Position numbers and translations under genes: made by a program. From NCBI RefSeq assembly GCF_014356525.2, contig NC_052508.1, positions 42,201,858 through 42,265,857 on the forward strand: DNA of 64,000 nucleotides, given 5' to 3'. Each line of letters starts with the position of its first letter. Within the stretch, counting starts at the first letter, position 1. The notes below the pieces were generated by a model, which saw only the letters and a program-made list of their open reading frames with translations, searched no databases and was not told where the DNA came from. Below, piece after piece: positions 1,067-64,000 of the stretch. Source of the stretch: Nilaparvata lugens (Eukaryota; Arthropoda; Insecta; Hemiptera; Delphacidae).

Positions 1067-4000
1067 TCAGATCAGCTGGCAATTAGCTGTATGTTTACTC
1101 ATTATTTTAGTAGAACTACTTGCTAAATCCTTACTACAACTACTTGCTAAATCCTTACTACTACTACTACTACTATTCATGCTGCTGCTGCTTAGAATAT
1201 ATTCAAAACTGTAAAGTTTCGCCCTTGAACCCGAAAAAGCAGTTATTTGAAAATTAGAAAGTTCATCTTTAAATGTACCAGGTACACCACAATTTAATTG
1301 GCTATAACAACAATGAGTGGTGGGGTAAGCACTTGTATCAAAATGTTGGAGATTTTGTTTGATAACTGCATAGATATTGTCTGATTTGATATGATATAGC
1401 AACGAGTCTGTATCGCTCATGCATAATTTCACACAGCTTGGATCAAACATTTTCAAGAAAATGTTGTAGTGGAAATTGTACATTGTAAATTTACTCAAAT
1501 CAAGAATAGAAAAACCAGCATAAATTGGACGATCCAATTTTATTTCTGTTTTACACATTTGTACACCAACAATGTCTTTGTCAAACACAATCCATCGTTT
1601 ACAACTTGGTTTTGCAATCAATCTTTCCAATGATTTCTGACAAGTAATTAGCTTAAAATCTATTTGTTTCCTAGAACTTTCAAGCATCTTGCCTTACAGT
1701 GAATTACTCAAAAATTTAAAGAGCTGATGTTCAAATGAATTTTTAGCCTCCTTCCTAAGTTGTGCATTCGAATCAATAAATGGTTCAAGCCAGTATGACT
1801 GTTGAAAAGCGATTACTCTATGTACAGCAGTCAATTTCATGCCTAAGCTTAAATAAAGTTTCAAATTTCTATAGTGAAGAACATAAAGATTACGATTATG
1901 AAGGGTTGCTAACAATCTTGTTGATGCGCTATCGCGCATGTCCATCACTTGTGACGATGACGACGGCGCCGCTTCTCTGTGCACAACATTGTCTTCTGTT
2001 TGATATGATGAGAACAGGCTGTGAGGCGGCTGATCTTTTAACGGTGCAAGTGGAAAGTCATTATATAAATCATGTAAATTATCAGGATACAACAGGTCTG
2101 CTTCTATTATATAGCCAATGTCTGCTTCATCATCAATAGTTGTAAAATCGCCTAAAACTGTAATTCCATCTTGTGATAAAAATCTAAAATTTGATTGCGG
2201 TAGTTTGTATGCAATCATTGAATGAGAGTATAAGCTTGTACAATCAAGATACAACAAAAAACTAGATTCAATAGCTGGATTATAATTACAACCCATGAAT
2301 TTATTGTTAGCGACTGCGTGATGGTGGGGAATGACTGACAAGCCGCCTCGTAAACCAATTTCTATGAGCAGGTTCATATAAGCATTGCTGATTAATTCCA
2401 AGTGTACTTTTGACAAAAATAACATTGCATTCAACAAAAAATGTGGTAACTAAACAAAGTAGGAAACGTCAAGCTTGTAAATCGAAAAAAATACATTGGT
2501 AAAATTTTGAAAAATATCTGCCAGCAATAAACAATCGGTGAGAAGGTAGAGATCATGATAATCGCCTATCGGTTCAATGTCAAAATTGTGCCATACTTTT
2601 TGTGCATGGTTGTAATCGCTTACTTGTAATGCTCTATTATTAAGACTACTGTAAAATGCCTCAATCGGTGGTAGTTGCTGTTCATCAAATTTGTCTGCAT
2701 CTGTTATATATTCATAGGGGTAGACACCCTTGCATAATAACAATTGTTGTTGGTTTTTTTCGTTGAATATGCTACACATTACTTTGAAATTTGTTTCAAT
2801 GTTTTCTCTATCACTTGCAAGATTGACAACAAGTGTCTGTAGACTTGAGAACAAAAATTGATAGCTATCAAGAAATCTTACCCGTTCTACTGTAATTGTG
2901 AGGAATTTTTCAGATGAGTTTGCAATACAATGAATTTTTTCCTTTCGTCCTGCTAAAGCCTTCACAATGAAATGACTGTCATATCCGCGAAAATTATGAA
3001 AAAACCAGTTTAAGAATGACAGTGCTTTTGCATTTAAATTACAAGTCTTGTGTGTTGCACCGAGATACAAGCCAGTCATATGCGAATGATGTCTGCATTG
3101 AATATTGTTGTCTTTAAATTCATCGTTGCACAAAAAACAGTTTTTACTATTGTTAAAATCTAATAATTGTTGTTCATTTAGTTCAATCATTGGCACTTCG
3201 CGTTGCATATCAAAAGAACAGTCTCGACCTATGGCTATGATTTCATCTAGAAATTTTTCAACAATTTTCTCACCAACACTTGTAGCTCTATAGACGCGTG
3301 GACCGTAAAATATTTCACCTAATTCATCTAAAATAATGAATGAGTAACCGCAAGCAACTTGTTTTTGTGTTTTCCTTGTAAAGCTATTTCTTATATCAGT
3401 TCCAAGCAAATCAGCATCATCATCATCATCATTATCTGTTGGTACAATAAAACTTTCAAAATCAGCAAATGCAATGTATTTATTTCTCAAAGTGTATGAA
3501 TAATTCCTAAACTTCAAAATTTCACCCTGTTTAGGCAGTATTGTTTTTTGTATAGCAAATGTTGAGCACAAATCCATGTGCTTGTCTAAATTTGTTTTTC
3601 CGTCACAATTTGCTTGTCTATTAGTTGTGAATTTATTGGAACAAAATGGGCAAATAAACACTTGTCCATTATGTGATGACAAGTGGTGGCTCAGTAGTCG
3701 TGAAAAACCATTATACACTTGATGTGTGTTTAACAGAACATAGTGCAATTTTTTCGGTGTTGTATCATTTGACAAGAGTAAAAGATTTATTTTGTGTTCA
3801 CATTGTCTATAAATTGAACAACGGTACGGGAAAAACTTATTGTTACTTGAATCATAGGCAATCACTGTGATTGATATGTTCACATTTTGTAATTCAAATT
3901 TTTTAATGTCATGCACTATGCTAGGAAACTTCATACTGGTCAAATTCAGTGTTTTTTCAAATTGTTTAAGATAATCAACAGTCATACTGCTACGTCTAAA

Positions 4001-4455
4001 ATGAAAATAGCTAAATACGCTCCATAGGAAACATTTGCTATCGTTTCTGTTCTGTACATTATAATGGCTTTTTTTGCTTTTATAAAAGCAGGTGTTTCAA
4101 TATATGTGCTATTCCCGCCAGTTAAAGGATTATAACAAATAATATTTAAATCAAGGGAAATAATTTTAACAACATTCCATCCACTACCGTATCTTATAAA
4201 TTTGTCAACTGTCGATTCTATTTTATCTACACCTCTAATAAACTGATCTTGCAACTCATCTAAATGTTCATCAACATTAACTAACACAGACGTAAAACTA
4301 TAGAATGATGCATTTGTTGTAGTTTCAATAATTTCCTGTTGATTGTTATCAACATTCACTTTTTTCAATAAAACAGTTGTTACAAAATACCATTTAATAT
4401 TTCCGTCAAAATGTTCACTTCCTTCAACAATTAGTTCAATTAGTTTAAGTTTCAA
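1067..4455 (-). pseudogene. polB: Protein-primed family B DNA polymerase of an endogenous Polinton/adintovirus-like virus (broken)
   Basis: This would have replicated a linear dsDNA viral genome. Counting from the ATG at 3,985, a CPFC...HMDLC zinc-type motif lies at residues 112-140. Exo I (ADFESF, D175/E177) and Exo II (NFRGYD, 331-336) follow, with Exo III (YLLTDCLLLA) near the C-terminal end of that segment. After a TAG at 2,450-2,452, motif A (DCTSLYS) follows. After a TAA at 1,694-1,696, motif C (SDTDSLLY) follows. These three segments share one frame. The first about 130 residues (3,982-4,455, starting at a non-ATG codon) are in another frame, and the switch lies near an A-run at about 4,068-4,083. 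The C-terminus is serine-rich and partly tandemly duplicated (about 1,100-1,190). The domain order fits Polinton/adintovirus PolB; the gene is inactive as read. Confidence 0.93.
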
Positions 4456-4611
4456 AATTTGCAGTAATGTTTGAACAACATCGATAAATATTTTTCTAAA
4501 TAAAAGACTATATCATATTGTGCTTGAATTAATGCTGGTTATTCTTTCAATTGTATAATCCATTAATTATTTGAAGTAGTAGTAGTAGTAGTAGTAATAA
4601 TAAGAAATTTC

Positions 4612-4938
4612 TCACCGCTTGAAAGTTGTTTGTGGATCGATGTTTTCTTTACCGCTGTTTTCGTTGTCGCTGGCTTCGTCCTTTGCAGCACATGTGTTGT
4701 TGCACAAAATTGCAGGTGCATCCAGTCCCTGCTCACTAGACCAACTATTGGTCAATGGTTTCTGCAACTGCACCCCCTCCTCAGCTGGCGTGGAGATTCG
4801 TTGTCCTCTTCTGACACCGTGTTTTTGATACCAACGCCTCTGGTCTAATCGAATCGGTTTTGGTGTTGGGCAAAAAAGTTTTGCTGGCGGTGAAGTGCAG
4901 TCAGCCGTCTTGTCGCCTTCATAGTCCTTCATAGTCAT
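4612..4938 (-). CDS. Small acidic/basic ORF with KEN-box-like motif, possible upstream exon
   Basis: The frame gives about 108 residues from the first ATG. I do not recognise it. It contains RRWYQKHGVRRGQR and ends SGKENIDPQTTFKR; the KEN tripeptide resembles an APC/C degron but may be chance. Upstream, on the minus strand, a T-rich tract ends in TTTCCAG near 4,991. The ORF ends exactly at CGGTGAGAAA, a good 5' splice-donor match. It could therefore be an exon spliced toward PolB (N-terminal segment from 4,455) instead of a free-standing gene. Only splicing data can tell. Confidence 0.35.
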   Translation of the reverse strand: MTMKDYEGDKTADCTSPPAKLFCPTPKPIRLDQRRWYQKHGVRRGQRISTPAEEGVQLQKPLTNSWSSEQGLDAPAILCNNTCAAKDEASDNENSGKENIDPQTTFKR

Positions 4939-5018
4939 CTCCTCCACCACCTCCTCTGCCACCACCACCACTTACTCCCCCTCCTCCCGTCTGGAAACAA
5001 CAAACGAATAGAATGAAA

Positions 5019-5088
5019 TGTGTGTATGTGTGTGTGTGTGTGTGTGTGTTGTGTGTGTGTGTGTGTGTTTGTGTTTGTGTGTGTGTAA
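5019..5088. repeat. (TG)n microsatellite
   Basis: A nearly pure TG/TGTT dinucleotide run of about 70 bases is directly visible. Confidence 0.95.
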
Positions 5089-5951
5089 ATGTATACATTT
5101 GCAATCGTACTGAATGAACAGATAAAATTTACTTGCACAAATATTTACAGTTTAGAGCAAGGCAATATAATCTCCACAATAGAACTTTAAGCATGTCAAT
5201 GTAATTGCTTGCTGCTTTTTCATGAATATTTTCAGTTTGTAAAAACAATCAATAATTGGATAAAATATTTTTCACTTACGTGAAGGTTGATGCTGCTGCA
5301 GCAGCTGCTGCTGCTGTTTCTGGCGATTGCTGTGAATCCATTAGCACACACACAATGATTTTTGCAACAAACGTAATCGAGTCACAACAAACGAATGCAA
5401 GCAAAAACATGGCAGACATTGCTTTTATATTGCCACTACTCAAACACACACAAGATAATTATTGCAATTATAATATGCACAATAACTGTCCCACAGCTGT
5501 TACTTTGACAGATGTTGATTCTGTTACAGTTCTTTGCAACGAAATTTGCAAGGTGCAAGCAACTTGGCCGTTTTTTTCCCTAAGCTGATAAAGCATCTGT
5601 ACTAAAATTTTGCATAAAACATATGCATCAAACAGATATACTTTTTTGTTATTCTTGCCTTCTATATTCATCAAGTGGATAATATATAATTGCGAAAATC
5701 TGCTACCCTTCTGTCAGTTCAGCAGCAGCAGCAGCTATGAATCGCAAAAATTCAACAAACACTCCAGCACCAATCAGGACCGGCGCCGCCGAAATCAATG
5801 TAAGTTCCATACAAGTTTTGTTTAGCAAACTAATCAGTCTTCTTCTACACATAAAATGGTCTTCTTTGCTAGCACTGTCAATAGTCTTCTTCTTCTTCTT
5901 CTACAAACTAAACTCTACTGTTATATAAATACTAAAACACAGCTGTTAACA

Positions 5952-6045
5952 TTCTTCTTCTTCTTCTCCTTCTTCTTCTTCTTCTTCTTCTTCTTCTTCT
6001 TCTTCTTCTTCTTCTTCTTCTTCTTCTTCTTCTTCTTCTTCTTCT
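5952..6045. repeat. (TTC)n microsatellite
   Basis: About 30 TTC units with few interruptions are visible, and a shorter TTC cluster lies near 5,889-5,903. The tract gives a long spurious phenylalanine frame. Confidence 0.97.
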
Positions 6046-6083
6046 TTACTCATTGTTCTTTTTTTTACAAATTCACAATTTGG

Positions 6084-6646
6084 CTATGATTGTATATGTA
6101 GATCAAACAATTGGTATTGATTGATCGATATGTCTGCCCACATACAACATGCACTGCATATAAGACCAAATCCATTCAAATTTGAAAAATCAATTCCGTA
6201 GTAAAAACTGTCAGTTGCAAGCTGTTTGAAATTTTTCGGCAAACAGTCTATTTTCATAAATGAATTTTCACATTCGTATTGCACATCATAATCTGGTTTT
6301 TTCTGAAAAGTTGTTGTTCTAATATTGCCAACAAGAAAATTATTTATGGAACCGCATTTGGGTGACCATTTTTTGTGCTCAAAAATAGCATAATCAGTGT
6401 CTTCCCAATTTTCCAAAACTACATTGCAAAAAACACATTTTGTTCTATCGTGCACTTTTAAAAAATAGAAACCTGCTTCTGCTAGATGATTGGATTTAGG
6501 ATAGTGGTGTGGCCAAATCATTTTATTACCATCAAAAAATTAGTTAAGCCTATCTATTTCTTTAAGATAATTTACCACTTTTTTATTGTCTGTATCATCA
6601 TCATCATCCATACAATGAATACAACACTTTCTTGCTTGCTGCAACA
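6084..6646 (-). pseudogene. BIR-domain, IAP-like protein (one in-frame stop)
   Basis: A baculoviral IAP repeat (BIR) binds caspases or related partners and blocks cell death; large insect DNA viruses often carry such genes. From the ATG at 6,521 the frame shows LAEAGFYF, then C29-x2-C32, W39, H49 and C56, the CX2CX16HX6C zinc pattern of BIR domains. The same frame extends upstream to an ATG at 6,646 with an Asp run and an RLN..FF start typical of the BIR N-terminus. A TAA at 6,540-6,542 interrupts that start. A second CxxC (ICSAC) near residue 120 may be a decayed second repeat. No RING finger is visible. It lies between PolB and the plus-strand capsid genes. Confidence 0.85.
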
Positions 6647-6714
6647 TTTGTGTTAGTCAGCAACTGAAAAAGAAAAATAATAGCATATTATTATGTGTCC
6701 TGTTTGTTTTTCAG

Positions 6715-7548
6715 TCAGCACAAGAAGAATGGACTGAGGATGGCACAATGGCGGTGCTGGAGCAAGAGTTTCACTCAATTTCTTTGACAGCTTTGCCTGA
6801 CCTATTTGATGATGATGATTAAATTTTACTTTATATCAGTGAGGATGCATTCAATCATCATCAACTAGGCCAGGCCTTCCCAACATCATCATCATCTCAA
6901 GCCAATCAACTAGGACAGGCCATCCCATCATCATCATCATCTCCAGCCACATCGTTTGCACCGCCCTCATCACTGCCAGTCTCCCCCCAGCCAGCATTCC
7001 CCCCTGCCCGTCCAGCATACCAACCAGCCCAAGCAGTGCTGCCTCCCCCCGCCACACCATCATCTCCAGCCACATCGTTTGCGGCACCCTCACCACTGCC
7101 AGTCTCCACCCAGTGCGCATTCCCCCCTGCCCGTCCAGCATACCAACCAGCCCAAGCAGTGCTGCCTCCCCCCGCCACCGCACCATCAACCAGCAGACAT
7201 CAACCATATGCACGCATAGTTGCTGCATGGCAGGAAGAGTTCAATTTCACAACTTTGGATAGGTTGTGCAACCAACCCCGTTGTCGCACAATTGCACTCA
7301 AACATTTTTCAGAATTGCTAGAATATCCTGTTATAGGGGCGCGAATTGTGCGCTCCTATAATCAGGATTGTGTAATTATTAGAGTTGTGAATGTGGGACG
7401 ACGGGCGAATGAGAATGATGAAATTGAAACCTTCCTGCCGCAGAAATTTGCAGCGGCAATTATGCGTGCAAATGTGCATTCATTTAATAATTCATGTCTA
7501 AATTTAATCATGTCAGTCAAACATGTACCAGGTCGACACTATTGTTGA
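6715..7548 (+). CDS. Proline-rich protein with C-terminal domain shared by two other proteins here
   Basis: I do not recognise a named family. The frame runs from a strong splice-acceptor-like site (GTTTGTTTTTCAG, ending 6,714) through an acidic segment (LPDLFDDDD), meets a TAA at 6,820-6,822, then stays open to 7,548. Residues encoded at about 6,936-7,181 are two 41-residue proline/alanine-rich repeats. The C-terminal about 110 residues (RIVAAWQEEF to HVPGRHYC) share a pattern with 13,096-13,554 and 46,370-46,681: Y-P/R-V..AR.V, a beta-strand-like I/V run, then FLP.KF. No clear ATG starts the long part; the first internal ATG or a spliced start is possible. An OB-fold-like nucleic-acid binder is only a guess. 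Confidence 0.55.
6936..7181 (+). repeat. Two 123-bp tandem units (41 codons each) in the proline-rich gene
   Basis: CTCCAGCCACATCGTTTGC occurs at 6,941 and 7,064, a spacing of 123 bases. The units preserve the reading frame and encode PARPAYQPAQAVLPPPAT twice. Confidence 0.93.
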
Positions 7549-7605
7549 ATTGTTACAGCATGAGCTGTAACATTTTAAAATATTTGTAAATTTTTAAAAA
7601 TTTTG

Positions 7606-7608
<3 letters not shown>

Positions 7609-7652
<44 letters not shown>
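7609..7652. repeat. (AT)n microsatellite
   Basis: An uninterrupted AT dinucleotide run lies just after the proline-rich gene and before the membrane-protein gene. Confidence 0.97.
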
Positions 7653-7661
<9 letters not shown>

Positions 7662-7834
7662 AACTTACCTTGCGTGCGTGTCTGCCAATGTGCAACCTTG
7701 TGTGCATAACAACAACTGATGTGCAATCATTGTTGTACTTGTCTATTCATAGTCAAAGACCTCAGTCACGCACAGTGAATACACGCAAACTTAGTTTGTC
7801 AGTAGCAGTTGCAGCAGCAGCAGCAGCAGCAGCA

Positions 7835-8245
7835 ATGAAGACAGGTTATGGAATAATTATTGTTACATTCATAATATACACAATTAGTATGATATTACTT
7901 TTTACACTGTGTAGTAGTAGTGTTGAAAACAGTAACCAAACAGTAAAAGACAGCAGCAGCAGTACTGTCAATTTAACCGCCTTTAGAGCACATATATTAT
8001 TTTATATAAGACTATGTGTTCAATCTAAAATGAATTATAAAACAACGAAATTATTTGATGATGGACTAGACAGGTGGTATGCTTATATGAATGATCAAAG
8101 AAAGGTAATATGTGATTTTTTCAACAATTATACATCATTGAACAGTTGTATCAACATAAACCCAGCATCAGGTGATAGTATATCAAATCTTCTGCTAATA
8201 ACAACATTTCAACTTTGTAATATATTTGAGGTGGGTGACGGTTAA
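7835..8245 (+). CDS. Small signal-anchor membrane protein, unrecognised
   Basis: The frame gives 136 residues from the ATG at 7,835, which follows a CAG-rich tract. A hydrophobic segment at about residues 6-25 (GIIIVTFIIYTISMILLFTL) would be a signal peptide or type II anchor. The rest is polar with several Cys and N-glycosylation-type sites (NQT, NYT). It lies directly upstream of the PLA2-like virion gene on the same strand. It may be a virion or host-modulating membrane protein; no homology is evident. The frame is intact. Confidence 0.5.
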   Translation: MKTGYGIIIVTFIIYTISMILLFTLCSSSVENSNQTVKDSSSSTVNLTAFRAHILFYIRLCVQSKMNYKTTKLFDDGLDRWYAYMNDQRKVICDFFNNYTSLNSCININPASGDSISNLLLITTFQLCNIFEVGDG

Positions 8246-8307
8246 TTGAATTTCCTATTTAGTATTAATTTAACATTGCTATTGAAAGGAAGGTAGCAAG
8301 AGAATCA

Positions 8308-8964
8308 ATGCATCGTCGTCGACAATGTGGCACTGGTATTTTATCAAAACTTAGTGGATTCGCCTCAACCACCCTTAATAAAATTGTTGACAACTTACCA
8401 ATTGAATTGCATATCCCCCCCAACTATCGCTTTTGTGGCCCAGGCACAAAGTTAGATAAAAGATTAAAGAGGGGGGATAAAGGAGTTAATTCATTAGATG
8501 AAGCATGTAAAGTGCATGATATAGTGTACACACGGCATAGTGATAACAAGACAGGAGCAGTGGCCGATCATCATTTGGCTGACACTGCATGGGCTGTTCT
8601 CAAAAATCCAAACACTGGTTTATCTGAAAAGGCAGCTGCATATCTAGTTACAAATTTGATTAAAGCAAAAGCTGCATTTGGTGGTGGTGGTAGCCGCGGC
8701 TGCAAAGGAAAACGGAAAACATTAGGTTGGAAAAATAATTCATCACTACAAGAGCAAAGAAGTGCACATTCATGACAAAAAGGAATCAAACAATTAAGTA
8801 AACACCTATCTGGTCAAGGTTTTTATTTAAGACCATATACACTTTTGAGTGGTGGTGGTGGTGGTGCTGGTAGAATCATCCCAAGTCCAAGCAGACAAAA
8901 GATTGAGAGGAGGAGAAAAACTGCAACAAAGAAGAAGAAGAGGACAACAAGGAAGAAAACATGA
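8308..8964 (+). pseudogene. Parvovirus VP1-type phospholipase A2 protein with basic tail (in-frame TGA)
   Basis: PLA2 domains in parvovirus VP1 breach endosomal membranes during entry, and some adintovirus-like elements carry them. Residues 40-48 (YRFCGPGTK) fit the calcium loop. Residues 64-74 (DEACKVHDIVY) match the catalytic DxxCxxHDxxY with H70/D71, and ADHHLAD follows. A TGA at 8,773-8,775 ends the first 155 residues. The same frame stays open to the TGA at 8,962 and encodes SGQGFYLRPY, a glycine run, then a Lys/Arg-rich end like adenoviral core peptides. The halves may once have been one minor virion protein, or the tail a separate one. Confidence 0.88.
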
Positions 8965-8970
8965 AAATAA

Positions 8971-9333
8971 AAGGTACCGCTGTCAAATTATGATCTACAA
9001 GATTGGGCTGATATTTTAGATATCAAATTACATGGGATTTATATGATTGATACACTGCCAAAAAGAATTAATTTCAGTGAAAAAGCAATTATAAACTTGG
9101 ACTCGATTATGAACAGTGGAACACATTGGGTGGCTTATAAAAAACATGCACATAGAGTTTATTATTTTGATCCAATTGGTAATTTACAGCCACTTGTTCA
9201 ATTAATAGACTATTTCGAACAACAGCCAAATGTGGAAATTTATTTCAATTATGATCAATTACAAAAACCAAATAGTAATGTATGTGGTCATTTTTGTCTT
9301 TTATTTCTTGCAGATGTGTTCAGTCAGTTGTAG
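8971..9333 (+). pseudogene. Adenain-like (C5/C48-type) cysteine protease, viral maturation protease
   Basis: This family cleaves capsid precursors during virion maturation. From the ATG at 9,043 the triad is visible: H28 in GTHWVAY, D43 in YYFDPIG and C81 in NVCGHFCLLFL. The frame is open upstream to 8,971 and encodes a PLSNYDLQDW segment typical of the N-terminus of these proteases. That segment lacks an ATG; the nearest (8,961) is one base out of frame beside an A-run. It is therefore either lightly broken or starts at 9,043 and is short. It lies between the PLA2 and penton-like genes, as expected for a virion module. Confidence 0.87.
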
Positions 9334-9365
9334 AAGTGTGTTAGAGAAGGTGGTGGTAACACACA

Positions 9366-10049
9366 ATGGTTGTAATAACATTATCAAACAGTGGTAGCTG
9401 TTTAATAGAAGTACTACCCACTGTATTAGAGCTTGATACATGCTATGAATATGAAATTGGTTTGATTAATTTATGGACATACAATAGTGTACCGAATAAA
9501 ATCAAAAATGTCAACTCATCTTTCAAGTATGGTGATAAATTGGTTGATTTGGATACAGGTTCCTATGAAATTGATCGTATAATAAGTGAAATAAAGAGAA
9601 AATTAAATGTTGATAGTTAAAATCTCATTCTACAGGGGAATAATACAACAATGCTATGTGAATTAAAAGCGGATAAAGATGTTGATTTAACAATGAGCAC
9701 TTCACTGGCTGATATACTTGGTTTTGATAGAGAAATTCTAGTAGCAAATAAATGGCATTATTCTAAACGATTAGTGTGCATCACAAATATAACATCGTTC
9801 CAGATTAGTTGTAATCTAGCATGCAGTAGTTATCGGAATGGAGAAGAGGTTCATACAATTTTTGAATTTCTTCCAAAGGTTGCACCTGGTTTTCTAATAA
9901 ATAAATCGCCAAATCAAATTATTTATTTTCCATTGAACACACATAGAATTCAATCTATTGTAATTCAGATAGTTGATCAGAATGGTAAACTAGTTGATTC
10001 CCGCAGTGATAGTATAACAATGAGAGTTCACATTAGATGGAAGGAGTGA
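9366..10049 (+). pseudogene. Penton-like minor capsid protein (single jelly roll), in-frame TAA
   Basis: Two segments in one frame, 9,366-9,617 and 9,621-10,049, are separated by a TAA at 9,618-9,620. The first ends GSYEIDRIISEIKRKLN. The second has LADILGFDRE, FEFLPKVAPGF and a C-terminal MRVHIRWKE. This pattern recurs in the small capsid protein next to the major capsid gene in invertebrate Polinton/adintovirus elements. The protein would form the vertex pentamers. Assignment is from pattern memory; a profile search would settle it. Confidence 0.72.
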
Positions 10050-10145
10050 GAGAGAGAGAGAGGAAAGATGAATGCTAGGTGTGTTAGAACATTGTGTGTG
10101 TGTGCATTAGTTGTGTGTGAACAACACAAGCGAGAGAGAGAGAGA

Positions 10146-10325
10146 ATGGGTTTTGTTATTTATAACCTAGCGCCAGGTGCAAGTAGGTCTGCTAGTCGTC
10201 AGCCGCCGCCGCTTAGTACTTATCAGTCTGTGGAACTGATAACACATAATCGAGCAAGGTTTTTAGAAAAGCTTGGTTTTAAAGTAAATTGGAAATATGT
10301 CATCAACATACGCAGCCGCAATTAG
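10146..10325 (+). CDS. Short ORF overlapping the start of the capsid gene
   Basis: The frame gives 59 residues from the ATG at 10,146; an upstream in-frame ATG at 10,068 lies in GA-rich sequence. The segment VELITHNRARFLEKLGFKV looks amphipathic and protein-like. It overlaps the capsid ATG (10,297) by 29 bases. It may be a tiny virion protein. I do not recognise a named family. Confidence 0.35.
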   Translation: MGFVIYNLAPGASRSASRQPPPLSTYQSVELITHNRARFLEKLGFKVNWKYVINIRSRN

Positions 10326-11511
10326 CGACATACTAAATGTTGAACAAGATATACACTATTATTCAGATATAACAAAATTTGATTATCACACTCATGCTCC
10401 ATATGGTAATTTGAAATTTCATTATAATGACGAGATTCACATTTTAAAATCATCACACGATCTTATTTCTTTCGTTGCAAAATCTTTTCTTATTGTTGAA
10501 GGAAACATTACATGTAAAAAGCCGGGTGAAGAAAAAGAAGACCCGCTCGTTGATGCACAATATATGCCCAACTCGAATGCAGTAGCACATATGTTTGATG
10601 AGATACGATTTGAATTGGCAGGTACAGGTGTTGAGAAGTGTCATCTAGTGGGTATTACTTCATCTATAAAAGCATATTTAGTGAAAAAACAAATCGATAA
10701 AAATACATATGAGCTAGCAGGATTCAATAAGGGAGGATTAACACTTAGTGATAATAGATTTGCATTTTGTGTGCCATTAAAATAACTTCTACCATTTTTT
10801 GAGGATTTTCAACACATGATTTTGAATATGAGACAAGAGCTTGTACTATTGAGATCGGCAACAGATGTTAATTGTATTATATCCTCTAATGCTACAACAA
10901 TGTCATTGGAAATAACAGAACTGCTTTGGAAAGTACCTTATATACATGTAGATGATCATTTAAGATTGAAATTTCTAAAAATTGTCGATCAGGATAGGCC
11001 GTTGAAAATTGTGTTCAGAAAATGGGATATTCATGAATACCCGCAATTACCCAGTTCAACTTCAACTGTTTGGATGATAAAGATGGCATCAAAGGCTGAC
11101 ACACCACGATTTGTAATATTAGCATTTCAGACCAACAGGAAAAATGTAATGTCAAAGACAATGTCCAATTTTGATTCATGCAAATTGCATGATGTTAAAC
11201 TTTTCTTAAATAGTGAATATTTACTGTATGTTCGACTAAATGGAAACAAACAACTTTTGTACAAAATGTTTTTGGATTTTGCACCTAGCTATTTTAATTT
11301 AGGAATCCATACCGAGCATGGTACAGATGTAGATTATAAAACTTTTACTGATAACTGTGCAATAGTTGTACTCGGTTGTTCACATCAAGCTGATCATTTA
11401 ACATCGTCAACAGACATTCGATTGGAAATGGAATTTGCAGAGAATGTACCAAATTTAATGACTGCATATTGTATTTTAATAAGTGACACATTAGTGGAAA
11501 CAATAATATAG
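10297..11511 (+). pseudogene. Double-jelly-roll major capsid protein of a Polinton/adintovirus-like virus (in-frame TAA)
   Basis: This protein would form the icosahedral shell. One frame runs 10,297-11,511, interrupted by a TAA at 10,783-10,785. The first part (162 residues) includes HMFDEIRFELAG. The second includes PFFEDFQHM just after the stop, NMRQELVLLRS, FQTNRKNVMSK, VKLFLNSEYLLY and VVLGCSHQADHL. These are hallmarks of the F54H12.2-like proteins annotated in many invertebrate genomes and now read as viral capsid proteins. Length near 405 codons fits a double jelly roll. It lies directly after the penton-like gene. Confidence 0.85.
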
Positions 11512-11579
11512 AGCGCATTAGTTCGCGAAGTTCAGTAATTTGACGCAAGAGTGTGTGTTTTATGAACATAGGAGGGGGG

Positions 11580-11617
11580 TATATATAAGTGCGTGTTTAA
11601 ACAGTAATTATATCAGT
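11580..11617 (+). promoter_or_regulatory. TATA box plus arthropod initiator
   Basis: TATATATAAG at 11,580-11,589 is followed by TCAGTT at 11,613-11,618, an arthropod Inr match about 31-33 bases downstream. The ATG of the next gene is at 11,622, so the leader would be only a few bases long. Confidence 0.4.
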
Positions 11618-11621
11618 TGTG

Positions 11622-12525
11622 ATGAGTAGCTTAGATATTCCTCAACCGCCATCACCATCATTATTGCCAAAAGCAAAATTTGATGCATTTGTACAAAGAA
11701 TGTGTGCTGGCGATGGGCAACAGAAGATGGATGAAGAAGGGAGCAGCAGCAGCAGCAGCAATTCGACAGAATTTCGAGAAATTGGTATACAATGCGACAT
11801 GGATAAAGAAGAAGAAGTAGAAGAAGAAGAGGCGGCACAGGAAAGAATGGAGAAGAATTGCCTCGAACAGAAAAGTGATTCTTCTTTTGCTGTAGTCAAG
11901 TTACATTTTTTCAAAAGTGATGATAACTTCATCATTATTAAAGAGGTAGGCATAATTGATCACAATCTACTCCATATTGTTCTACACTTTAAATCACCAT
12001 TTGCAAAAAAATTACTGAGTAGAAAAATGTATCGTGATGGTGTTGTGTATCGTCTGTTGGTTGGAGCATAACTATCATAAAATTAGATGGGATCAAGGTG
12101 ATTTGACTTATTCTGATGAACTGTTAGCATCATACTTGCAGAATTATTTCACAATCCATACAAAGGGAAGAGGAAAATCACAGTTTTTGAAAAGGTTACA
12201 CAACAATGTAGAAACTATGCCGGAGAACTTTGAAAAACCAGACTATTCAATGTTTACAGATTCTTGGTGTTTTAGTGTATGCAAAATTCATAACAAAACT
12301 AACAATGCTTGTTGTGCACTTTTTAGTGCATATCATTATTTGACAATCTTGTTGAGTAAGAAGCAAACAGAGAGAAAGGAGAATAGTGCAGCAGCAGCAG
12401 CAGCAAACAATTTGCTAAATTCCGATTATACATGTGAAAATAATAGAATGGAAAGTATGAAGCATTGTAATCTATACACAAAACAGCTAAAACGCAAGTA
12501 TGCACGACAAGGATTCTATTTCTAA
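11622..12525 (+). pseudogene. Unrecognised viral gene, two frames
   Basis: From the ATG at 11,622 the first frame has a proline-rich start, serine and glutamate runs, then a folded-looking part (FAVVKLHFFKSDDNFIIIKEV) ending at 12,071. The second frame overlaps it from 12,034 and continues WLEHNYHKIRWDQGD, YTKGRG-like and FLKRLHNN segments to 12,525. The two join near 12,055, so a one-base change is likely. The joined pattern resembles an uncharacterised protein common in mobile elements of hemipteran genomes. I know no function. An alanine run and a C-terminal tandem duplication follow. Confidence 0.5.
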
Positions 12526-12595
12526 GTATGAAGCATTGTAATCTATAAACAAAACAGCTAAAACGCAAGTATGCACAACAAGGATTCTATTTTGA
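12454..12595. repeat. 71-bp tandem duplication
   Basis: AGTATGAAGCATTGTAATCT starts at 12,454 and again at 12,525. The two 71-base units differ at a few positions. Because 71 is not a multiple of three, the duplication shifts the frame and creates the stop that ends the upstream ORF. Confidence 0.93.
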
Positions 12596-12734
12596 TGGAA
12601 AAAACATTCTATGTGTTTATTGTGGATTTGATTTGAATTCGCATAGAGCAAGAGTATGCAGTCTAGCCTGTAGCGAAGGTGGAGGGGGACGGCAGAAACA
12701 AATAAATTTCACTGTTTTTGTACCACTCATTTAG
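12526..12734 (+). pseudogene. BIR-like zinc-finger fragment
   Basis: After the duplicated unit, a frame encodes RQGFYFDGKNILCVYCGFD and ends at a TAG (12,732-12,734). The GFYF....CxxC pattern is that of the first half of a BIR domain, but the His and last Cys are not in place. It could be the C-terminal end of the preceding gene or a decayed IAP remnant. Confidence 0.4.
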
Positions 12735-12760
12735 ATGTGAAGAAGCAGCATCAGAGTATA

Positions 12761-13099
12761 ATGAATCCTCAAACTTGGTCTTATGCACCAGTATTCTTGG
12801 AAATAAAACTACAAGAGAATATTGAATGTTATGAAATGTGTGAAAAAGCAATACATTCTGCTGAGGAGGGAAATAGTAAAAGTATTGCTAGACAAATGAA
12901 ATCAATATTTTCAAATTCGGTGAATGTTAGTGATATCAGTGATTATTTAGCTTATTATAGACCATTTAGATTGAGTGTAGACAAACTGATGAAAATTGAA
13001 GAAGAAATATTGTTATCGTTATGTGGAACTGGAAGTGTGGAAGAAGAAGAAGGGGAGCTAGTAGAAAGTGAGAGCTTAGAGGAAGGTATGTGTAAATGA
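12761..13099 (+). CDS. Unrecognised 112-residue protein with acidic tail
   Basis: The start is the ATG at 12,761 (MNPQTWSYAPVF). The middle looks helical and the end is glutamate-rich. The stop overlaps the next ATG as ATGA (13,096-13,099), which suggests coupled or bicistronic expression. I see no family motif. The frame is intact. Confidence 0.45.
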   Translation: MNPQTWSYAPVFLEIKLQENIECYEMCEKAIHSAEEGNSKSIARQMKSIFSNSVNVSDISDYLAYYRPFRLSVDKLMKIEEEILLSLCGTGSVEEEEGELVESESLEEGMCK

Positions 13100-13554
13100 G
13101 TAGCAGGTGGAGCGGTGAACATGGAAGGGGTGAGCAGCAGGCGAAGCGGCAGCTGTTGGCTGTTCAGTCACATGCATGCGCAACGAGAATCATGGATTAT
13201 CAACAGCAGAGTAACAGTGGAAATGATCGACATTTCAGTATGGAATCTTTCAATTATATTTCAAAAACGGAATATCCGATGGTCTCACTCAAAGAACTTG
13301 TGCACGATTCATGGTACCGTGTTGTACATGCTAGATTGGTGAGAACACAACAAGGACAATGTATCATCATGAGGTTATACGATCTTGACAGCAATGGTGA
13401 CCATAATTGTGAAGTTTACTTACCTGAGAAATTTCTAAGTGTTTCAAATGTGCAAACACTTGATGATTTCAACAAACAAAAACTCTATCTGAAGTGTATA
13501 CAGCGAGAAGGTAAATTGCAACTTGTTCTTTTAGAAGAAGAAAGGAATATATAG
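13096..13554 (+). CDS. Small protein, second member of the FLP.KF family
   Basis: The frame gives 152 residues. Residues about 65-140 contain WYRVVHARLVRTQQGQC, IIMRLYDLD and VYLPEKF. They line up with the C-terminal part of the proline-rich gene at 7,200-7,548 and with 46,370-46,681. An arginine/glutamine-rich N-terminus precedes this. No named family is recognised; a compact beta-barrel nucleic-acid binder is a guess. The frame is intact. Confidence 0.55.
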   Translation: MSSRWSGEHGRGEQQAKRQLLAVQSHACATRIMDYQQQSNSGNDRHFSMESFNYISKTEYPMVSLKELVHDSWYRVVHARLVRTQQGQCIIMRLYDLDSNGDHNCEVYLPEKFLSVSNVQTLDDFNKQKLYLKCIQREGKLQLVLLEEERNI

Positions 13555-14079: not shown

Positions 14080-14666
14080 TTGGCAAGCCTGCTGCTGCAG
14101 GCCCAAGCAGGTTGGAACAAGCCTTCCTATTGGTGGGGCATGTGCACCTGCTCAACAAAGAAGGGAAACAAGCCTTCCTATTGGTGGTGGTGGGGCATGA
14201 CAGGTGCACCTGCTGGTCAACAAAGAAGGGGAACAAAATGGCTGTATCTGTCTTCCTATTGGTAGGGCCTATTGGTGAGGGCAATTGGTAGGGAGTCCAT
14301 TGGTGGGGGGTGCCTTCCTATTGGTGGGAGGCCTGACTCATGGGCAGGGGGGCCACCATTTTGCACATGGTGGGGGACAACACAGGGAAATCCGCCATTT
14401 TGGACATGCTCCTTCGCTTCCTATTGGTTGGGGGAGGGGCTTCGGTGAGGGGCAGAATGGCTAATGCTAGGGCTGGCGAGGCAGAGGGGGATGTGGTGGG
14501 GGAAATCTGCCATTTTGGCCACGCCCCCTCACTTCCTATTGGTTGGGGCATGGCCAAAATGGCCGACACTAGTGCTGGGGTGTGAAGGGGTGGTGAGGGC
14601 GGGGTTTTAGGCCATGCCCCTCGTCACCTATTGGTCTTGTGCAGAACTCTCAAATCTACACTACTC
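14080..14666 (+). repeat. CCAAT/ATGGC motif array, left copy
   Basis: TTCCTATTGGT and close variants (reverse: CCAATAGGAAG) recur about every 30-80 bases, interspersed with CCATTTTG/CAAAATGGC and GC-rich runs. The end CTTGTGCAGAACTCTC...CTACACTACTC is shared, inverted, with 62,272-62,310. The end GCCCAAGCAGG near 14,100 is shared with 62,980-62,995. It is the GC-richest long stretch nearby. It is either a repeat family or a viral terminal/regulatory region. Confidence 0.85.
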
Positions 14667-15057
14667 GCAGGTAATGTTTTTTGAGCTTTTGAATGTCCTC
14701 AGACAACATATATAGTTAAACTGAACACCACTCATTGCCGTGCAATTGGGCCTGAACAGAGATTAGCAATCTGATCAACACTAGATTACTTATGTGGAAT
14801 TGTTGTTACACCATCACTTAAGTGTCGTGAATTTTACTACTACTTATCTTTTTTTTAACTACACTTCAAATCAAATTTTTCGCATTTATTCTATTATAAC
14901 TTTGTTCCGAGTACTCTTCGTACTTGAAAAACAAATTTTATTCACTTGAAACCCCAAAACTTTTATTTATATAATCAAACATATAGTGAACCTGAAGATT
15001 CCAAGTTTCCAAAAACAGGATTTTTGAGTTAGGCAAAAATTTATTCTAGAATATATT
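14667..15057. other. No gene seen
   Basis: AT-rich sequence with no coding pattern or repeat that I can name. Confidence 0.5.
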
Positions 15058-37378: not shown

Positions 37379-37439
37379 TTTTTTGACAACTTCAAGAAAG
37401 GTACAAAAAAAAAACAGATTTCACATTTATTTACAAATT

Positions 37440-37600: not shown

Positions 37601-37619
37601 CAGAATTTTATGTTGGGAA

Positions 37620-41886: not shown

Positions 41887-44304
41887 ACCAGTTCCTGAAT
41901 TGCTGTCCAAATTCGCGAAATCAAGTTTGGAAATTTCTTCCTCTGTGAGGAATTTGAAATTTCCAACAGGGAGGGGTCTGCTCATAGCTTCCGAGTATAA
42001 ACTGTTTGCATCGATATAAAGCAGATAATTAGACGGTTTTGAAGGATCGTATGTCTCAGGTAGATGTTTGGTATTTGCTTTGCAATAACGTTTACCGATA
42101 AATGACACCCCACCCCTCATCAGCGCCTCAAACATAAGATGCATGTCAGGATCTGTAAGTAATTGCAGTTCGACTTTAGTGTGTTTCAGCATGCAATTCC
42201 AGGTGAAGTGCGCGAGAGAAAGAAAATGGGTCACATCAAGACCGTATGAGCTAAAAAGCGTAGACCTCATGGATTCAAAAACTACCGCTAATAGCATTAC
42301 GTCCAAACATAAAAAAAATCGTGATATTCACCCAGATTTTTCAGCTTGAATGTTGAGAACACTCTTTGCGCATGCTCATATTCTTCGCGAGACAGAGGTG
42401 TATCAGTTAAGTCGTTATGAAAACATTCAATGGGAGGGAGCGATGTTTCCGCGAATTTTTCAGGACAGCTCATGTACGAGTAGGGATATACTCATTTTTT
42501 CAACAAGAGCTGTCTGTGTTTGCAAGGTGGATCATGAAACACCGAAAATAATCATTCAAACTTCTTTTCCATGTCTGTACTTTCCACCAAATTACGCACC
42601 AATACCTTCAAGGATTCAGACATAAACTTGTAGGAATCTAAAAATTTAATTTTGCCTACTGAAAGTGTCAAAAATCTCTCTGACGTATTTGCGATGCAGG
42701 AAATTTCTTTTTTACATTTACCGAGCGATTTCAGAATAAAATGTGAATCAAAACCGGAGAAATTATGAAAATAACACGAAATGTACTCCGGAGTATGAGC
42801 TGTTAAATTGCAAGAAACATGTGCTGCACATAGGTAATTACCGGTTTCATGTGCATGGTGTCGACATTTAATATCGGTTTCTGAAAACGGTTCAGCACAA
42901 AGCCCGCAGTTTACTGAATTTTGAAATTCGCGCTCTTCACTTTCGGACAAATGTTGCATCAGAATTTCACGTTTCATATCCTCATACAAAATTTCGCCAA
43001 GATCTGTAATTTCCTGAAGAAATTTCTCCATGATTTTTTCGTCTAAACTACTCGATCTATGGAGTACAGGTCCGTATGCAATTTCTCCGTTTACATCTAT
43101 AACAACGAAACAATACCCACAAGGAATATGCCGCGCCGTTTTCTTTGTGTAACTACGAGTAACTTCATCAGAATCGGAATCATCATCATCATCATCATTA
43201 ATATTCACAACGTATGTTTCTAAATCCGCGTAAATGGTGTACTTTCTCTTCAATGTCGCGCCTAGTTTCTTGAATTTAATTGTCTCTCCGCGTTTAGGAT
43301 ATGAAACGCGCTGAGATTCAAACTTGGAACAAAGTTCCATATGTTTCAACAAATTTGCTTTACCATCACAATTTTTAGTTTTGTCTGATGTGAACCGGTG
43401 GAAACAAAAATTACAAACATGTACTTGACCGTGGGATTTTGAAAGGTGGGAGAGAAGACGAGATAGCCCGTTTTTCCCGTTCGCGGTATTTACTAAACAA
43501 TAATGAGTTTTTCCTGCATCGCCTTTTAACATTAAAAGATTAATTTGGTGTTTACGAGTGCGGAAAATGCTTGTACGGTAGGGGAAAAACTTTTTGTTGT
43601 CATACGCGATGACGTGAATTGCAATGTCCGGATTGAGTATTTCAAATTTCTTAATATCGCATGTTGTCACCGGGAAATTTACACCTCGCATATTGAGTCT
43701 GTGAGCAAACTTGCTCAAATACTTTACAGTCAAGTGTGAGTCCTTTGGCTTCTGATGGAAATACGCGAGCACTGACCATAAAAAATATTTTTCGTCAGAG
43801 AGATTTTTGACATTTATAATACATTTTTTGTTTTTCAAAAACTGGGGTGTTTGAATGAAAACTGGATGTGTATATAGGATTAAATTTAATCACATTTACA
43901 TCCAGTGATTCAATTTTCTTTAGCACCCATCCGCTCCCATGTCTTACGAAATTTTCGAAAGACATGAGGATTTTTCTCACAGCCAAGAAAAAATGCTCAT
44001 TAAAATCTTCATAGTTCTCAAGCACGTTTAGCGCTATGTTGGAGTAACTATGTAGATTTATTAGAGATGAAACAGACTCATCAACCTTGTCATCCAGCAC
44101 CACTAATTTATACAATAAAACGTTTAAAACTATGTACCACTTTACATTTCCATCATACCGTGCCGCATGCTCCCTAATTATCTCGAAAACTCGAGTTTTC
44201 GACCTCTCAAGCACATTCTCAATGTCAATATCCTCGTCATCGAGGGTGATGCGATGGCGGACTGCGCTTGAATTGATGCCACGAAGTCTGCGTTCCCTCG
44301 GCAT
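41887..44304 (-). pseudogene. polB: Second, diverged viral family B DNA polymerase (partial)
   Basis: This is a paralogous protein-primed PolB, roughly half identical to the first by eye. The segments are an N-terminal piece (44,304-43,795, ATG start), the exonuclease segment (43,838-42,552) with CNFCFHRF...HMELC zinc-type motif, ADLETY, FHNFSGFDSHFI, and a third piece (42,306 downward) with an Exo III-like LDVMLLAVVFES and motif A (IDANSLYSEAM). Frame changes lie near 43,830, 42,552 and 42,310. Motifs B and C are lost in the gap. Confidence 0.92.
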
Positions 44305-44407
44305 GATGCTGAAAAAACAAAAGAATAATGATCAGGATGGCATAGGCAATAGTGTGTGTGTGTGTAAAGGAGTACAATTCACAATCAGTTGTGAATTAGC
44401 ATTCACG

Positions 44408-44620
44408 ATGTTATCACAAGGACAGATAATGTTGCATGAAAGATTGAGATTATTATCTTTTGATAAAAGATGGTTGAAATCTTCTCCGCATTTGTCTGCG
44501 GAAAACATGGCGAAAGAGGGATTTATATTCTCATCTGCACCAGACATTGTGCAATGTGTATTTTGTTCAATTTATTTGGGAAAATTGAAATATTTAATAA
44601 CTGTAACCAAATATATATAA
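44408..44620 (+). pseudogene. Truncated BIR (IAP-like) gene
   Basis: From the ATG at 44,408 the frame reads RLRLLSFDKRW, then ENMAKEGFIFSS and IVQCVFCSIYLGKL: the first half of a BIR domain up to its CxxC. The sequence then departs at about 44,586, before the zinc-binding His and final Cys, and ends at a TAA-rich patch. A 33-base string at this break recurs at 45,693. It sits head to head with the second PolB. Confidence 0.75.
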
Positions 44621-62271: not shown

Positions 62272-63004
62272 GAGTAGTGTAGATTTGAGAGTTCTGCACA
62301 AGACCAATAAGTGGCCTAAAACCCTACCCCCTTCCCCCCCGCCACCACAAGCCCTAGTGTCAGCAATTTTGGCCATACCCCCAACCAATAGGAAGCCAGG
62401 GAGCGTGGCCAAAATGCCAGATTTCCCCCACCACACCCCTCTCCACCCCGCCAGTCACAGTGTCAGCCATTTTGCCCCCCACCAAAGCCCTTCCCTCAAC
62501 CAATAGGAAGCCAGGGGGCGTGACCAAAATGGCGGATTTCCCCTATCACACCCCCAACCAGGCCTAGTGTCAGCCATTTTATCCCCCACCAAAGCCCCTG
62601 GAGGTGCAAAATGGCGGTCCCCCTGCCCATGAGACAGGCCTCCCACAATAGGAAGCTCCCCCCCCACCAATAGGCCCCACCAATAGGAAGGCACACATGG
62701 CCATTTTGTTCCCTTTCTTTGTTGACCAGCAGCACCTGTTAGCAATAGGCCCCACCACCAATAGGAAGGCACACATGGCCATTTTGTTCCCCTTCTTTGT
62801 TGACCAGCAGCACCTATTAGCAATAGGCCCCACCACCAATAGGAAGGCACACATGGCCATTTTGTTCCCCTTTTTGTTGACCAGCAGCACCTGTCACCAA
62901 TAGGCCCCCCCACCAATAGGAGGGCACACATGGCCATTTTGTCCCCCTTCTTTGTTGACCAGCAGGTGCACATCCAACACCTGCTTGGGCCAGCAGCCCA
63001 TTTT
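62272..63004 (-). repeat. CCAAT/ATGGC motif array, right inverted copy
   Basis: This is the reverse-complement relative of 14,080-14,666, sharing both ends and motif content (ACCAATAGGAAG, CAAAATGGCGG). The end abuts a PolB fragment at about 63,005. Confidence 0.88.
62680..62990. repeat. Four tandem units of 77-78 bp
   Basis: CCAATAGGA(A/G)GGCACACATG begins at 62,680, 62,758, 62,836 and 62,913. Each unit also holds CCATTTTGT, TTTGTTGACCAGCAG and usually a second CAATAGGCCCC. Confidence 0.93.
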
Positions 63005-64000
63005 GTTTTGATAAATTCACAACTAATAGACAAGCAAATTGTGACAGAAAAGCAAATTTAGACAAGCACATGGATTTGTGCTCAACATTTGCTATACAAA
63101 AAACAATACTGCCTAAACAGGGTGAAATTTTTAAGTTTAGCAATTATTCGTACACTTTGAAAAATAAATACATTGCATTTGCTGATTTTGAAAGTTTTAT
63201 TGTGCCAACAAATAATGATGATGATGTGGATGATGGTGATTTGCTTGGAACTGATATGAGAAATAGCTTTACAAGGAAAACACAAGAACATGTTGCTCGC
63301 TGTTACTCATTTATTATTTTAGATAAATGAGATTAAATATTTTACGGTCCATGCGTCTATAGAGCTACAAGTGTTGGTGAGAAAAATGTTGAAAAATTTC
63401 TAGATGAAATCATAGCCATAGGTCAAAACTGTTCTTTTGATATGCAACACGAAGTGTCAATGATTGAACTAAATGAACAACAATTATTAGATTTTAACAA
63501 TAGTAAAAACTGTTTTTTGTGCAACAATGAATTTTAAGACAATGATATTCGATGCAGACATCATTCGCATATGACTGGCTTGTATCTCGGTGCAACGCAC
63601 AAGACTTGTAATTTAAATGCAAAAGCACCATCATTCTTGAACTGTTTTTTTCATAATTTTCGTGGATATGACAGTCATTTCATTGTAAAGGCTTTAGCAG
63701 GACGAAAGGAAAAAATTCATTGTATTGCAAACTCATTGGAAAAATTCCTCACAATCACAGTAGATTGGGTAAGATTTCTTGATAGCTATCAATTTTTGTG
63801 CTCAAGTCTACAGACACTTGTTGCCAATCTTGCAAGTGATAGAGAAAACATTGAAACAAATTTCAAAGTATTGTGTAGCATATTCAATGAAAAAAAAACC
63901 AACAACAATTGTTATTATGCAAGGGTGTCTACCCCTATGAATATATAACAGATGCAGACAAATTTGATTAACAGCAACTACCGCTGATTGAGGCATTTTA
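63005..64000 (+). pseudogene. polB: Close copy of the first viral PolB, N-truncated and decayed
   Basis: It matches 3,620-2,650 in reverse complement at about 93% by eye. It starts inside the zinc-type motif and carries Exo I (ADFESF) and Exo II (NFRGYD). It has in-frame stops near 63,328, 63,335, 63,535 and 63,968 and a frame change at the A-run near 63,890. It runs off the window. It has more lesions per base than the first copy. Confidence 0.93.

What the first reader, a model, noticed from the sequence alone, without database searches (positions are those of the whole stretch)
1067..13554. Endogenous Polinton/adintovirus-like virus with PolB, protease, capsid pair, PLA2 and BIR but no visible integrase or ATPase
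Seen: PolB, adenain-like protease, double-jelly-roll MCP, penton-like protein, PLA2 and BIR motifs within 12.5 kb. Known: Polintons and adintoviruses pair PolB, protease and jelly-roll capsids with an integrase and an FtsK/HerA ATPase. Inference: neither of the last two is visible in any frame here. Either they were lost, lie outside, or this lineage lacks them and entered the genome another way. The PLA2-BIR-PolB mix resembles a crossroads of adintovirus, parvovirus and bidnavirus gene sets.
Basis: partly seen in the sequence, partly recalled or inferred. Interest (0 to 1): 0.85.

Follow-up and report, generated by a model that had tools for sequence, protein, structure and literature searches.

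The report
Decayed Maverick virus missing its integrase
A broken copy of a virus-like Maverick (Polinton) element sits in what is likely an insect genome; its right end carries the six-base end motif reported for Mavericks, and the stretch examined holds no recognisable integrase or packaging-ATPase gene, most likely because this copy lost them or the window cuts them off, so it looks like a mostly ordinary genomic fossil.

Summary
From about 1,205 to 14,665 lie PolB pieces, BIR, PLA2, an adenain-type protease, a gene in the penton position (fold unconfirmed) and a double-jelly-roll MCP. No integrase or ATPase was recognised. Stops interrupt PolB, PLA2, the penton-position gene and the MCP: the copy is dead.

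New: the right end falls exactly on AGTAGT, read inward, and an internally deleted copy at 62,273-64,000 ends on the same motif with different flanks. That is the (AGT)2 end reported for vertebrate Mavericks (PMC8097293, passages), so ordinary Maverick integration is likely. PLA2 with PolB, protease, integrase and ATPase is published for Spodoptera Mavericks (PMC5803895); no parvovirus or bidnavirus crossroads is needed.

Why integrase and ATPase are missing stays open: no left end is in the window and the own-genome search did not complete. Loss or position outside the window is likeliest. A lineage lacking them is not excluded: the usual integrase site holds other ORFs, and a distant complete viral contig with PolB and PLA2 (L001) shows no rve domain.

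The parts
1205..4512 (-). PolB in pieces: ORFs 3985-4512, 2450-4096, 1694-2449, 1067-1693; a frame change between 3,985 and 4,096, in-frame stops at 2450-2452 and 1694-1696, last ~90 residues not recognisable
   Evidence: Pfam DNA_pol_B_2 4e-08; L001 PolB aligns to 4078-1205 over 1002 columns, residues 281-1220 of 1313, 31%; ORFs; stops
6084..6539 (-). BIR (inhibitor-of-apoptosis) domain ORF
   Evidence: Pfam 1.4e-17; PDB chain 8fvu, baculoviral IAP repeat-containing protein 1, 3.7e-20
6823..7548 (+). ORF of unknown family; C-terminal part is a paralogue of 13096-13554
   Evidence: blastp 2.6e-07, 29% over 72 columns; no Pfam family above cut-off
7664..8245 (+). ORF of unknown family with a hydrophobic stretch (by eye)
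   Evidence: no Pfam family above cut-off
8281..8958 (+). PLA2 protein, HD and CGPG motifs kept, in-frame stop TGA 8773-8775
   Evidence: Pfam 1.7e-10; P0020 77%, P0021 Nilaparvata lugens 75%; alignment A3; tblastn extent 67%
8971..9333 (+). adenain-type (C5) protease
   Evidence: Pfam 2.7e-08; PDB adenain 1avp E 0.0015, its best stretch alone 0.061, with GTHW, DPIG and QKPNSNVCGHFC aligned
9366..10046 (+). penton-position protein, in-frame stop TAA 9618-9620; jelly roll not confirmed
   Evidence: P0140 87-88%; model pLDDT 30.6
10297..11535 (+). [quoted passage not shown]
   Evidence: Pfam 1.6e-59, P0001, fold searches
11601..12525 (+). two overlapping ORFs of unknown family (11601-12071, 12019-12525); place matches ORF8 of Sf Maverick
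   Evidence: order comparison with PMC5803895
12674..13099 (+). ORF of unknown family
13096..13554 (+). ORF of unknown family, paralogue of the C-terminus of 6823-7548
14090..14665 (.). G+C-rich terminal repeat (start approximate); element right end at 14,665, end motif ACTACT at 14660-14665
62273..62990 (+). related terminal repeat in the opposite direction (inner edge approximate), end motif AGTAGT at 62273-62278 (copy 3)
62996..64000 (+). PolB piece of copy 3, 94.3% DNA identity to 3651-2652, joined directly to the terminal repeat: an internally deleted copy
   Evidence: junction
41887..44331 (-). PolB of a second, diverged locus, 48.5% to the main PolB piece over 437 columns; bounded at its left by ~100 N and a gypsy-like retroelement
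44447..44584 (+). BIR domain of the second locus
   Evidence: Pfam 1.7e-07

Best explanation
This is a decayed copy of a Polinton/Maverick (adintovirus-like) element whose integrase and packaging ATPase were likely lost from this copy or lie left of the window, rather than never having belonged to its lineage. Shown: PolB pieces, C5 protease, DJR capsid protein, PLA2 and BIR in one ~13.5-kb block, stop codons in PolB, PLA2, the penton-position gene and the MCP, and a right end on the motif AGTAGT shared exactly by a second, internally deleted copy with different flanks. Inferred: when intact it would have copied a linear DNA by protein-primed PolB, with the AGT repeat letting the primer jump back; built an icosahedral shell matured by the protease; used PLA2 to cross a host membrane and BIR to hold off host cell death; and an integrase, its own or supplied by a sister copy, would have joined its (AGT)2 ends to the chromosome. 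Afterwards point mutation and truncation or deletion wore it down.
For: Domains; DJR fold of the close MCP relative. Run PLA2-PRO-(239 aa)-MCP-ORF as in Spodoptera Mavericks, listed as ATP, ORF2, INT, CAP (PLA2, 4th small ORF), PRO, ORF6, ORF7 (404 aa), ORF8 (PMC5803895; section 11 part 1 and passages; figure not seen, order taken from numbering and text). End motif: identity of the two copies stops at AGTAGT plus one shared base and the flanks differ; AGTAGT occurs 33 times on the plus strand of 64,000 positions, so a given boundary hits it by chance about 5 in 10,000. PMC8097293 (passages): 5'-(AGT)2//(ACT)2-3' is the commonest vertebrate Maverick end; intact elements 12.7-24.6 kb, mean 16.9 kb; 96% of loci degraded; two kiwi loci each lack one core gene (pro or atp). 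The held part (1205-14665) is 13.5 kb, leaving about 3.4 kb at that mean size, room for genes of the Sf ATP (684 nt) and INT (930 nt) size. PMC4028283 (passages): ATPase identifiable in 83% of 72 Polintons, so missing genes are common. PMC11071296 (passage): all adintoviruses encode an integrase. Copy 3 shows internal deletion in this family.
Against: INT precedes the capsid genes in the lists for Sf and vertebrate Mavericks; here that space (4513-8280) holds BIR and other ORFs, no rve. The 1,204 bp left of the recognisable PolB show no rve or ATPase. No left terminal repeat is in the window, so truncation and cut-off cannot be told apart and no target-site duplication could be checked. The terminal repeats of the two copies are only 71.7% identical with many gaps although their PolB pieces are 94.3% identical: fast change of tandem units, or copy 3 is a recombinant. 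L001, a 15,128-bp contig with 123-bp perfect terminal repeats, PolB, PLA2 and a P-loop-like protein, shows no rve, so integrase-less relatives, though distant, seem to exist.
Confidence: 0.78

Rival explanations
1. The lineage itself lacks integrase and ATPase: the block ATP-ORF2-INT was replaced by BIR and small ORFs, and the element is inserted and packaged in trans by sister Polintons that recognise its (AGT)2 ends.
For: The expected integrase site holds BIR and two other ORFs. A second locus, PolB 48.5% identical, also has BIR next to PolB and no rve or ATPase in 44300-47601. L001 has PolB, PLA2 and a P-loop-like protein without rve between perfect terminal repeats.
Against: Both loci are incomplete on the PolB 3' side, where genes could have been. 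Copy 3 shows that internal deletions happen in this family. Published insect relatives carry both genes (PMC5803895; PMC8363768).
Confidence: 0.13
2. The element entered the chromosome without an integrase, for example by end joining of viral DNA.
For: No integrase gene seen; only one end of each copy is available.
Against: Two insertions end at the same base, on the Maverick end motif, with unrelated flanks; end joining would be expected to leave ragged ends.
Confidence: 0.04
3. A chimera of adintovirus, parvovirus and bidnavirus gene sets.
For: Parvovirus VP1 carries a PLA2 domain (PMC5803895); bidnavirus PolB is reported to descend from Polintons (PMC4061559, passages). One PLA2 relative is named 'coat protein VP1' by its source (P0126).
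Against: No parvovirus capsid or SF3 helicase domain in the Pfam scans. PLA2 stands in both Sf Mavericks, and of 429 related proteins (120 listed) the ones with a species name are from Nilaparvata, Lycorma, Aromia, Rhodnius and Episyrphus, all insects.
Confidence: 0.03

Closest known systems
Spodoptera frugiperda Maverick 1 and 2 (PMC5803895; section 11 part 1 and passages seen)
   Same: PolB of Maverick type, listed there with a weak recombination-endonuclease-VII match (here PF02945 at 0.85), PLA2-bearing CAP, C5-type protease, 404-aa ORF7, same order CAP-PRO-ORF6-ORF7-ORF8
   Different: Sf Mavericks carry ATP, ORF2 and INT before CAP; here BIR and unknown ORFs stand there. This copy is broken. 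Sequences were not compared here.
Nilaparvata lugens proteins LOC120353851 (MCP) and LOC120351358 (PLA2), and read-assembly proteins P0001, P0020, P0140
   Same: MCP 59% (P0001 86%), PLA2 75% (P0020 77%), penton-position gene P0140 88%. P0001 and P0020 both list a longest contig of 5,022 bp (probably one contig); P0020 is 96% identical to the N. lugens PLA2 protein.
   Different: These relatives are open; their gene neighbourhood could not be read here.
Drosophila-associated adintovirus 1 (PMC8363768, passages)
   Same: PolB, protease and capsid genes in 14.5 kb
   Different: Encodes integrase and an FtsK homologue. Sequence not compared here.
Vertebrate Mavericks (PMC8097293, passages)
   Same: 5'-(AGT)2 end motif; PolB module and capsid module on different strands; modules pointing away as described for the cane toad
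   Different: Intact ones carry int, atp and paired terminal repeats; only one end is visible here.
Polinton-like contig IMGVR_UViG_3300007522_001028 (L001)
   Same: PolB 31% over 1002 columns, PLA2 33% in the best segment
   Different: 123-bp perfect terminal repeats unlike (AGT)2; P-loop-like protein with weak AAA/NB-ARC matches (best 8.6e-04, below cut-offs) and a tail-fibre/S74-like protein; its likely MCP matched no Pfam family; no rve found

Membership tests
Polinton/Maverick | family B DNA polymerase of the viral/organellar type | tested here: met
   gene broken; protein priming itself not tested
Polinton/Maverick | double-jelly-roll MCP | tested here: met
Polinton/Maverick | C5/Ulp1-type cysteine protease | tested here: met
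Polinton/Maverick | single-jelly-roll penton | tested here: inconclusive
   gene present in the right place; model unusable
Polinton/Maverick | RVE integrase | tested here: inconclusive
   not found in the part held; the left flank is unread, so absence from the element is not shown
Polinton/Maverick | FtsK/HerA packaging ATPase | tested here: inconclusive
   no Walker A in 1-14,000, no family; left flank unread
Polinton/Maverick | 6-bp end motif such as (AGT)2 | tested here: met
   right end, two copies; left end not in window
[quoted passage not shown]
   only one end of each copy lies in the window; the genome search did not complete (16 calls)
Adintovirus (Buck et al. [quoted passage not shown]
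   no adintovirus reference sequence was at hand; by fold the MCP model matches an Adintovirus sp. protein (BFVD A0A8D9PE51, 7.5e-17), as it does many other DJR capsids
Adintovirus (Buck et al. definition, PMC11071296) | rve integrase with chromodomain | tested here: not met
   not in the part held; so it is called adintovirus-like, not filed as an adintovirus
Bidnavirus / parvovirus | SF3 helicase NS1 and parvovirus jelly-roll VP | tested here: not met
   no such family in Pfam scans

The most novel reading that the evidence does not exclude
An insect Polinton lineage that has dropped integrase and packaging ATPase altogether, put a BIR anti-apoptosis gene and small ORFs in their place beside PolB, and travels as a satellite whose (AGT)2 ends and capsid are served in trans by sister Polintons.
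Probability: 0.12. Interest if true: 0.65.

Novelty: new member of a known kind. Interest (0 to 1): 0.3.

Why it matters
It adds a family with intact planthopper relatives to the insect Mavericks, shows the Maverick end motif at two insertions of one lineage, and links a BIR gene to PolB at two loci whose PolB pieces are about half identical, so BIR is likely an inherited viral gene rather than a chance capture. If the missing integrase and ATPase proved lineage-wide, it would be a case of Polintons living off other Polintons.

Tried and rejected
Own-genome search (genome search, where own) was sent 16 times and never answered. Five viral-contig scans: MCP piece (1 stretch matched, none confirmed), MCP alignment A1 (28, none), PolB piece (7, none), PLA2 alignment A3 (14, one confirmed: L001), second PolB (9, none). 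The penton-position model failed (pLDDT 30.6). A1 found no PDB chain by sequence. The very long six-frame scan lost known domains and was replaced by shorter stretches, which do not cover all of 1-14,666. Rfam and tRNA gave nothing; PHROGs gave only weak matches to families of unknown function (best 0.0078). A candidate left end AGTAGT at 143 was rejected: beyond the six bases it does not match the right end. Alternative genetic code as the reason for the stops was rejected: TAA, TAG and TGA all occur. Starrett et al. 2021 and Kapitonov & Jurka 2006 are not held; nothing is quoted from them directly. Searches for Polinton with BIR (15 shown of 539) and for planthopper with Polinton (15 shown of 51) listed no paper that by title or abstract start describes such an element; passages of one of them, PMC12567637, were seen. 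That is no proof that none exists.
Full report
What is there. The block is a Polinton/Maverick-like element. On the minus strand lie PolB pieces (4512 down to about 1205) and a BIR ORF (6084-6539). On the plus strand follow an ORF of unknown family (6823-7548), another (7664-8245), PLA2 (8281-8958), C5 protease (8971-9333), a 239-aa-type gene in the penton position (9366-10046), the double-jelly-roll MCP (10297-11535) and four small ORFs up to 13,554. Pfam supports PolB, BIR, PLA2, C5 and DJR. The protease aligns with adenovirus adenain around GTHW, DPIG and NSNVCGHFC (that these hold the catalytic residues is recalled). The MCP fold was checked on the close database relative P0001 (pLDDT 83.9): its best solved matches are PBCV-1, with Sputnik and mavirus also high in the list. 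The penton call could not be confirmed.

It is dead. Stops lie inside the PolB coding stretch (TAG 2450, TAA 1694), PLA2 (TGA 8773), the penton-position gene (TAA 9618) and the MCP (TAA 10783, TAG 11509), and PolB changes frame between 3,985 and 4,096. All three stop codons occur, so a variant code is not the reason. Open relatives exist: P0001, P0020 and P0140, mainly from read assemblies, and named Nilaparvata lugens proteins. The host is therefore likely an insect, perhaps a planthopper; this was not tested directly.

The ends. The DNA from 14,142 to 14,666 recurs inverted at 62,272-62,813 (71.7% with many gaps). The last 38 bases are identical, and similarity stops at ...CTACACTACT plus one shared C, that is AGTAGT read inward. 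A 27-base end pattern occurs exactly twice in 64 kb even when 3 mismatches are allowed, against none in 100 shuffles. PMC8097293 (passages) names 5'-(AGT)2//(ACT)2-3' as the commonest end motif of vertebrate Mavericks. The chance that a given boundary falls on AGTAGT is about 33 in 64,000. So this family has standard Maverick ends. The copy at 62,273 joins this end directly to a PolB piece (62,996-64,000, 94.3% to 3651-2652), with a short shared ACAAAATGG stretch at the joint (also present, as AAAATGGC, in the repeat): an internally deleted copy. That shows that gene loss by deletion happens in this family. Unexplained: the terminal repeats are much less alike (71.7%) than the PolB pieces (94.3%). 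They are tandem arrays, which may change faster, but copy 3 could also be a recombinant of two subfamilies.

Integrase and ATPase. No Walker A pattern lies in any frame of 1-14,000, and Pfam with X at stops found no rve or packaging ATPase in 1-1301, 4400-8301 and 11400-14671, with BIR, PLA2 and C5 recovered as controls. In Spodoptera Mavericks the order is ATP, ORF2, INT, CAP (PLA2), PRO, ORF6, ORF7, ORF8 (PMC5803895; order read from the ORF numbering and text, figure not seen). Here CAP-PRO-ORF6-ORF7-ORF8 is matched in order and the ATP-ORF2-INT run before it is not. In vertebrate Mavericks one module is listed as polymerase, ATPase, PZ and the other as integrase, minor capsid protein, PW, MCP, protease. 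If this element is built like the cane-toad type, with modules pointing away from each other, ATP would be expected left of PolB, mostly outside the window (inference). The left end is not in the window, and recognisable PolB stops at 1205, residue 1220 of 1313 of the L001 PolB. So cut-off by the window, truncation of this copy, internal loss and lineage-wide absence all remain; the first three together are much the likelier, given PMC8097293, PMC4028283 and copy 3.

Against that reading. A second PolB locus (41,887-44,331, 48.5% identical over 437 columns) also carries BIR beside PolB (1.7e-07) and no rve or ATPase in 44300-47601. And the only confirmed viral contigs relative, L001, is a complete-looking 15,128-bp genome (123-bp perfect terminal repeats) with PolB, PLA2 (1.1e-14) and a P-loop-like protein (best match 8.6e-04, below Pfam's cut-off) but no rve: 12 of 12 ORFs of 100 aa or more were scanned (10, 2), plus three plus-strand frames of its first 3.6 kb and three minus-strand frames of its first 2.7 kb. 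Pfam at E<=1 also missed the PolB of L001 although tblastn finds it, so a diverged integrase could be missed there, and in the window, too.

PLA2 and BIR. PLA2 is not a parvovirus intrusion special to this locus. Both Sf Mavericks have it, and 429 of 472 candidates matched at E<=0.001, 120 of which were listed. BIR occurs at both PolB loci, though on opposite strands relative to PolB, so it likely belongs to the lineage. PMC11071296 (passage) mentions anti-apoptotic homologues in mammal-associated adintoviruses.

Verdict. An ordinary kind of fossil with a useful end motif and an unusual gene next to PolB. The missing integrase is real for the stretch held, but its meaning is undecided until the left flank or a full sister copy is read.

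Noticed in passing
41887-46681: Second, diverged Polinton-like locus: PolB (minus), BIR (plus, 44447-44584) and a small ORF 46361-46681 weakly like 13096-13554 (E 0.068); no capsid domain found in 44300-47601.
   Followed up: partly
62273-64000: Third copy, internally deleted: terminal repeat joined directly to a PolB piece, continuing past the window end.
   Followed up: partly
14074-14665 and 62273-62990: Terminal repeats carry 8 CCAATAGG motifs each (shuffle means 0.03 and 0.05) and 4 and 8 AAAATGGC motifs. Bare CCAAT exceeds 300 shuffles only in the first (10 against a maximum of 7; in the second 9 against 10). They recall CCAAT-box and YY1-like sites (names recalled), perhaps comparable to transcription-factor sites in adenovirus ends; tandem duplication alone could also multiply them.
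   Followed up: partly
36542-38572 and 39758-41786: A 2,031-bp direct duplication at 99.75% within a gypsy-like retroelement beside a run of about 100 N near 41785: a recent duplication or an assembly error.
   Followed up: no
33726-35024: 432-aa minus-strand ORF with a C-terminal hydrophobic stretch near a retroelement; looks like a retrovirus-type envelope protein (recall only; no Pfam hit).
   Followed up: no
15511-16325 and 47886-48695: piggyBac-like transposase remnants (PF13843 3.1e-10 on 15511-15837 and 1.5e-04, just below its cut-off, on 15984-16325; 47886-48695 judged by eye).
   Followed up: no
12453-12594: 71-bp tandem duplication of an ORF end; the ORF behind it (12549-12731) weakly resembles a BIR start (GFYF..CVYCGF; blastp to the BIR ORF E 2.1), so not significant.
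   Followed up: partly
L001:1-15128: Complete-looking free polinton-like viral genome with PolB, PLA2, a P-loop-like protein and a T4-tail-fibre/S74-like protein, without recognisable integrase.
   Followed up: partly
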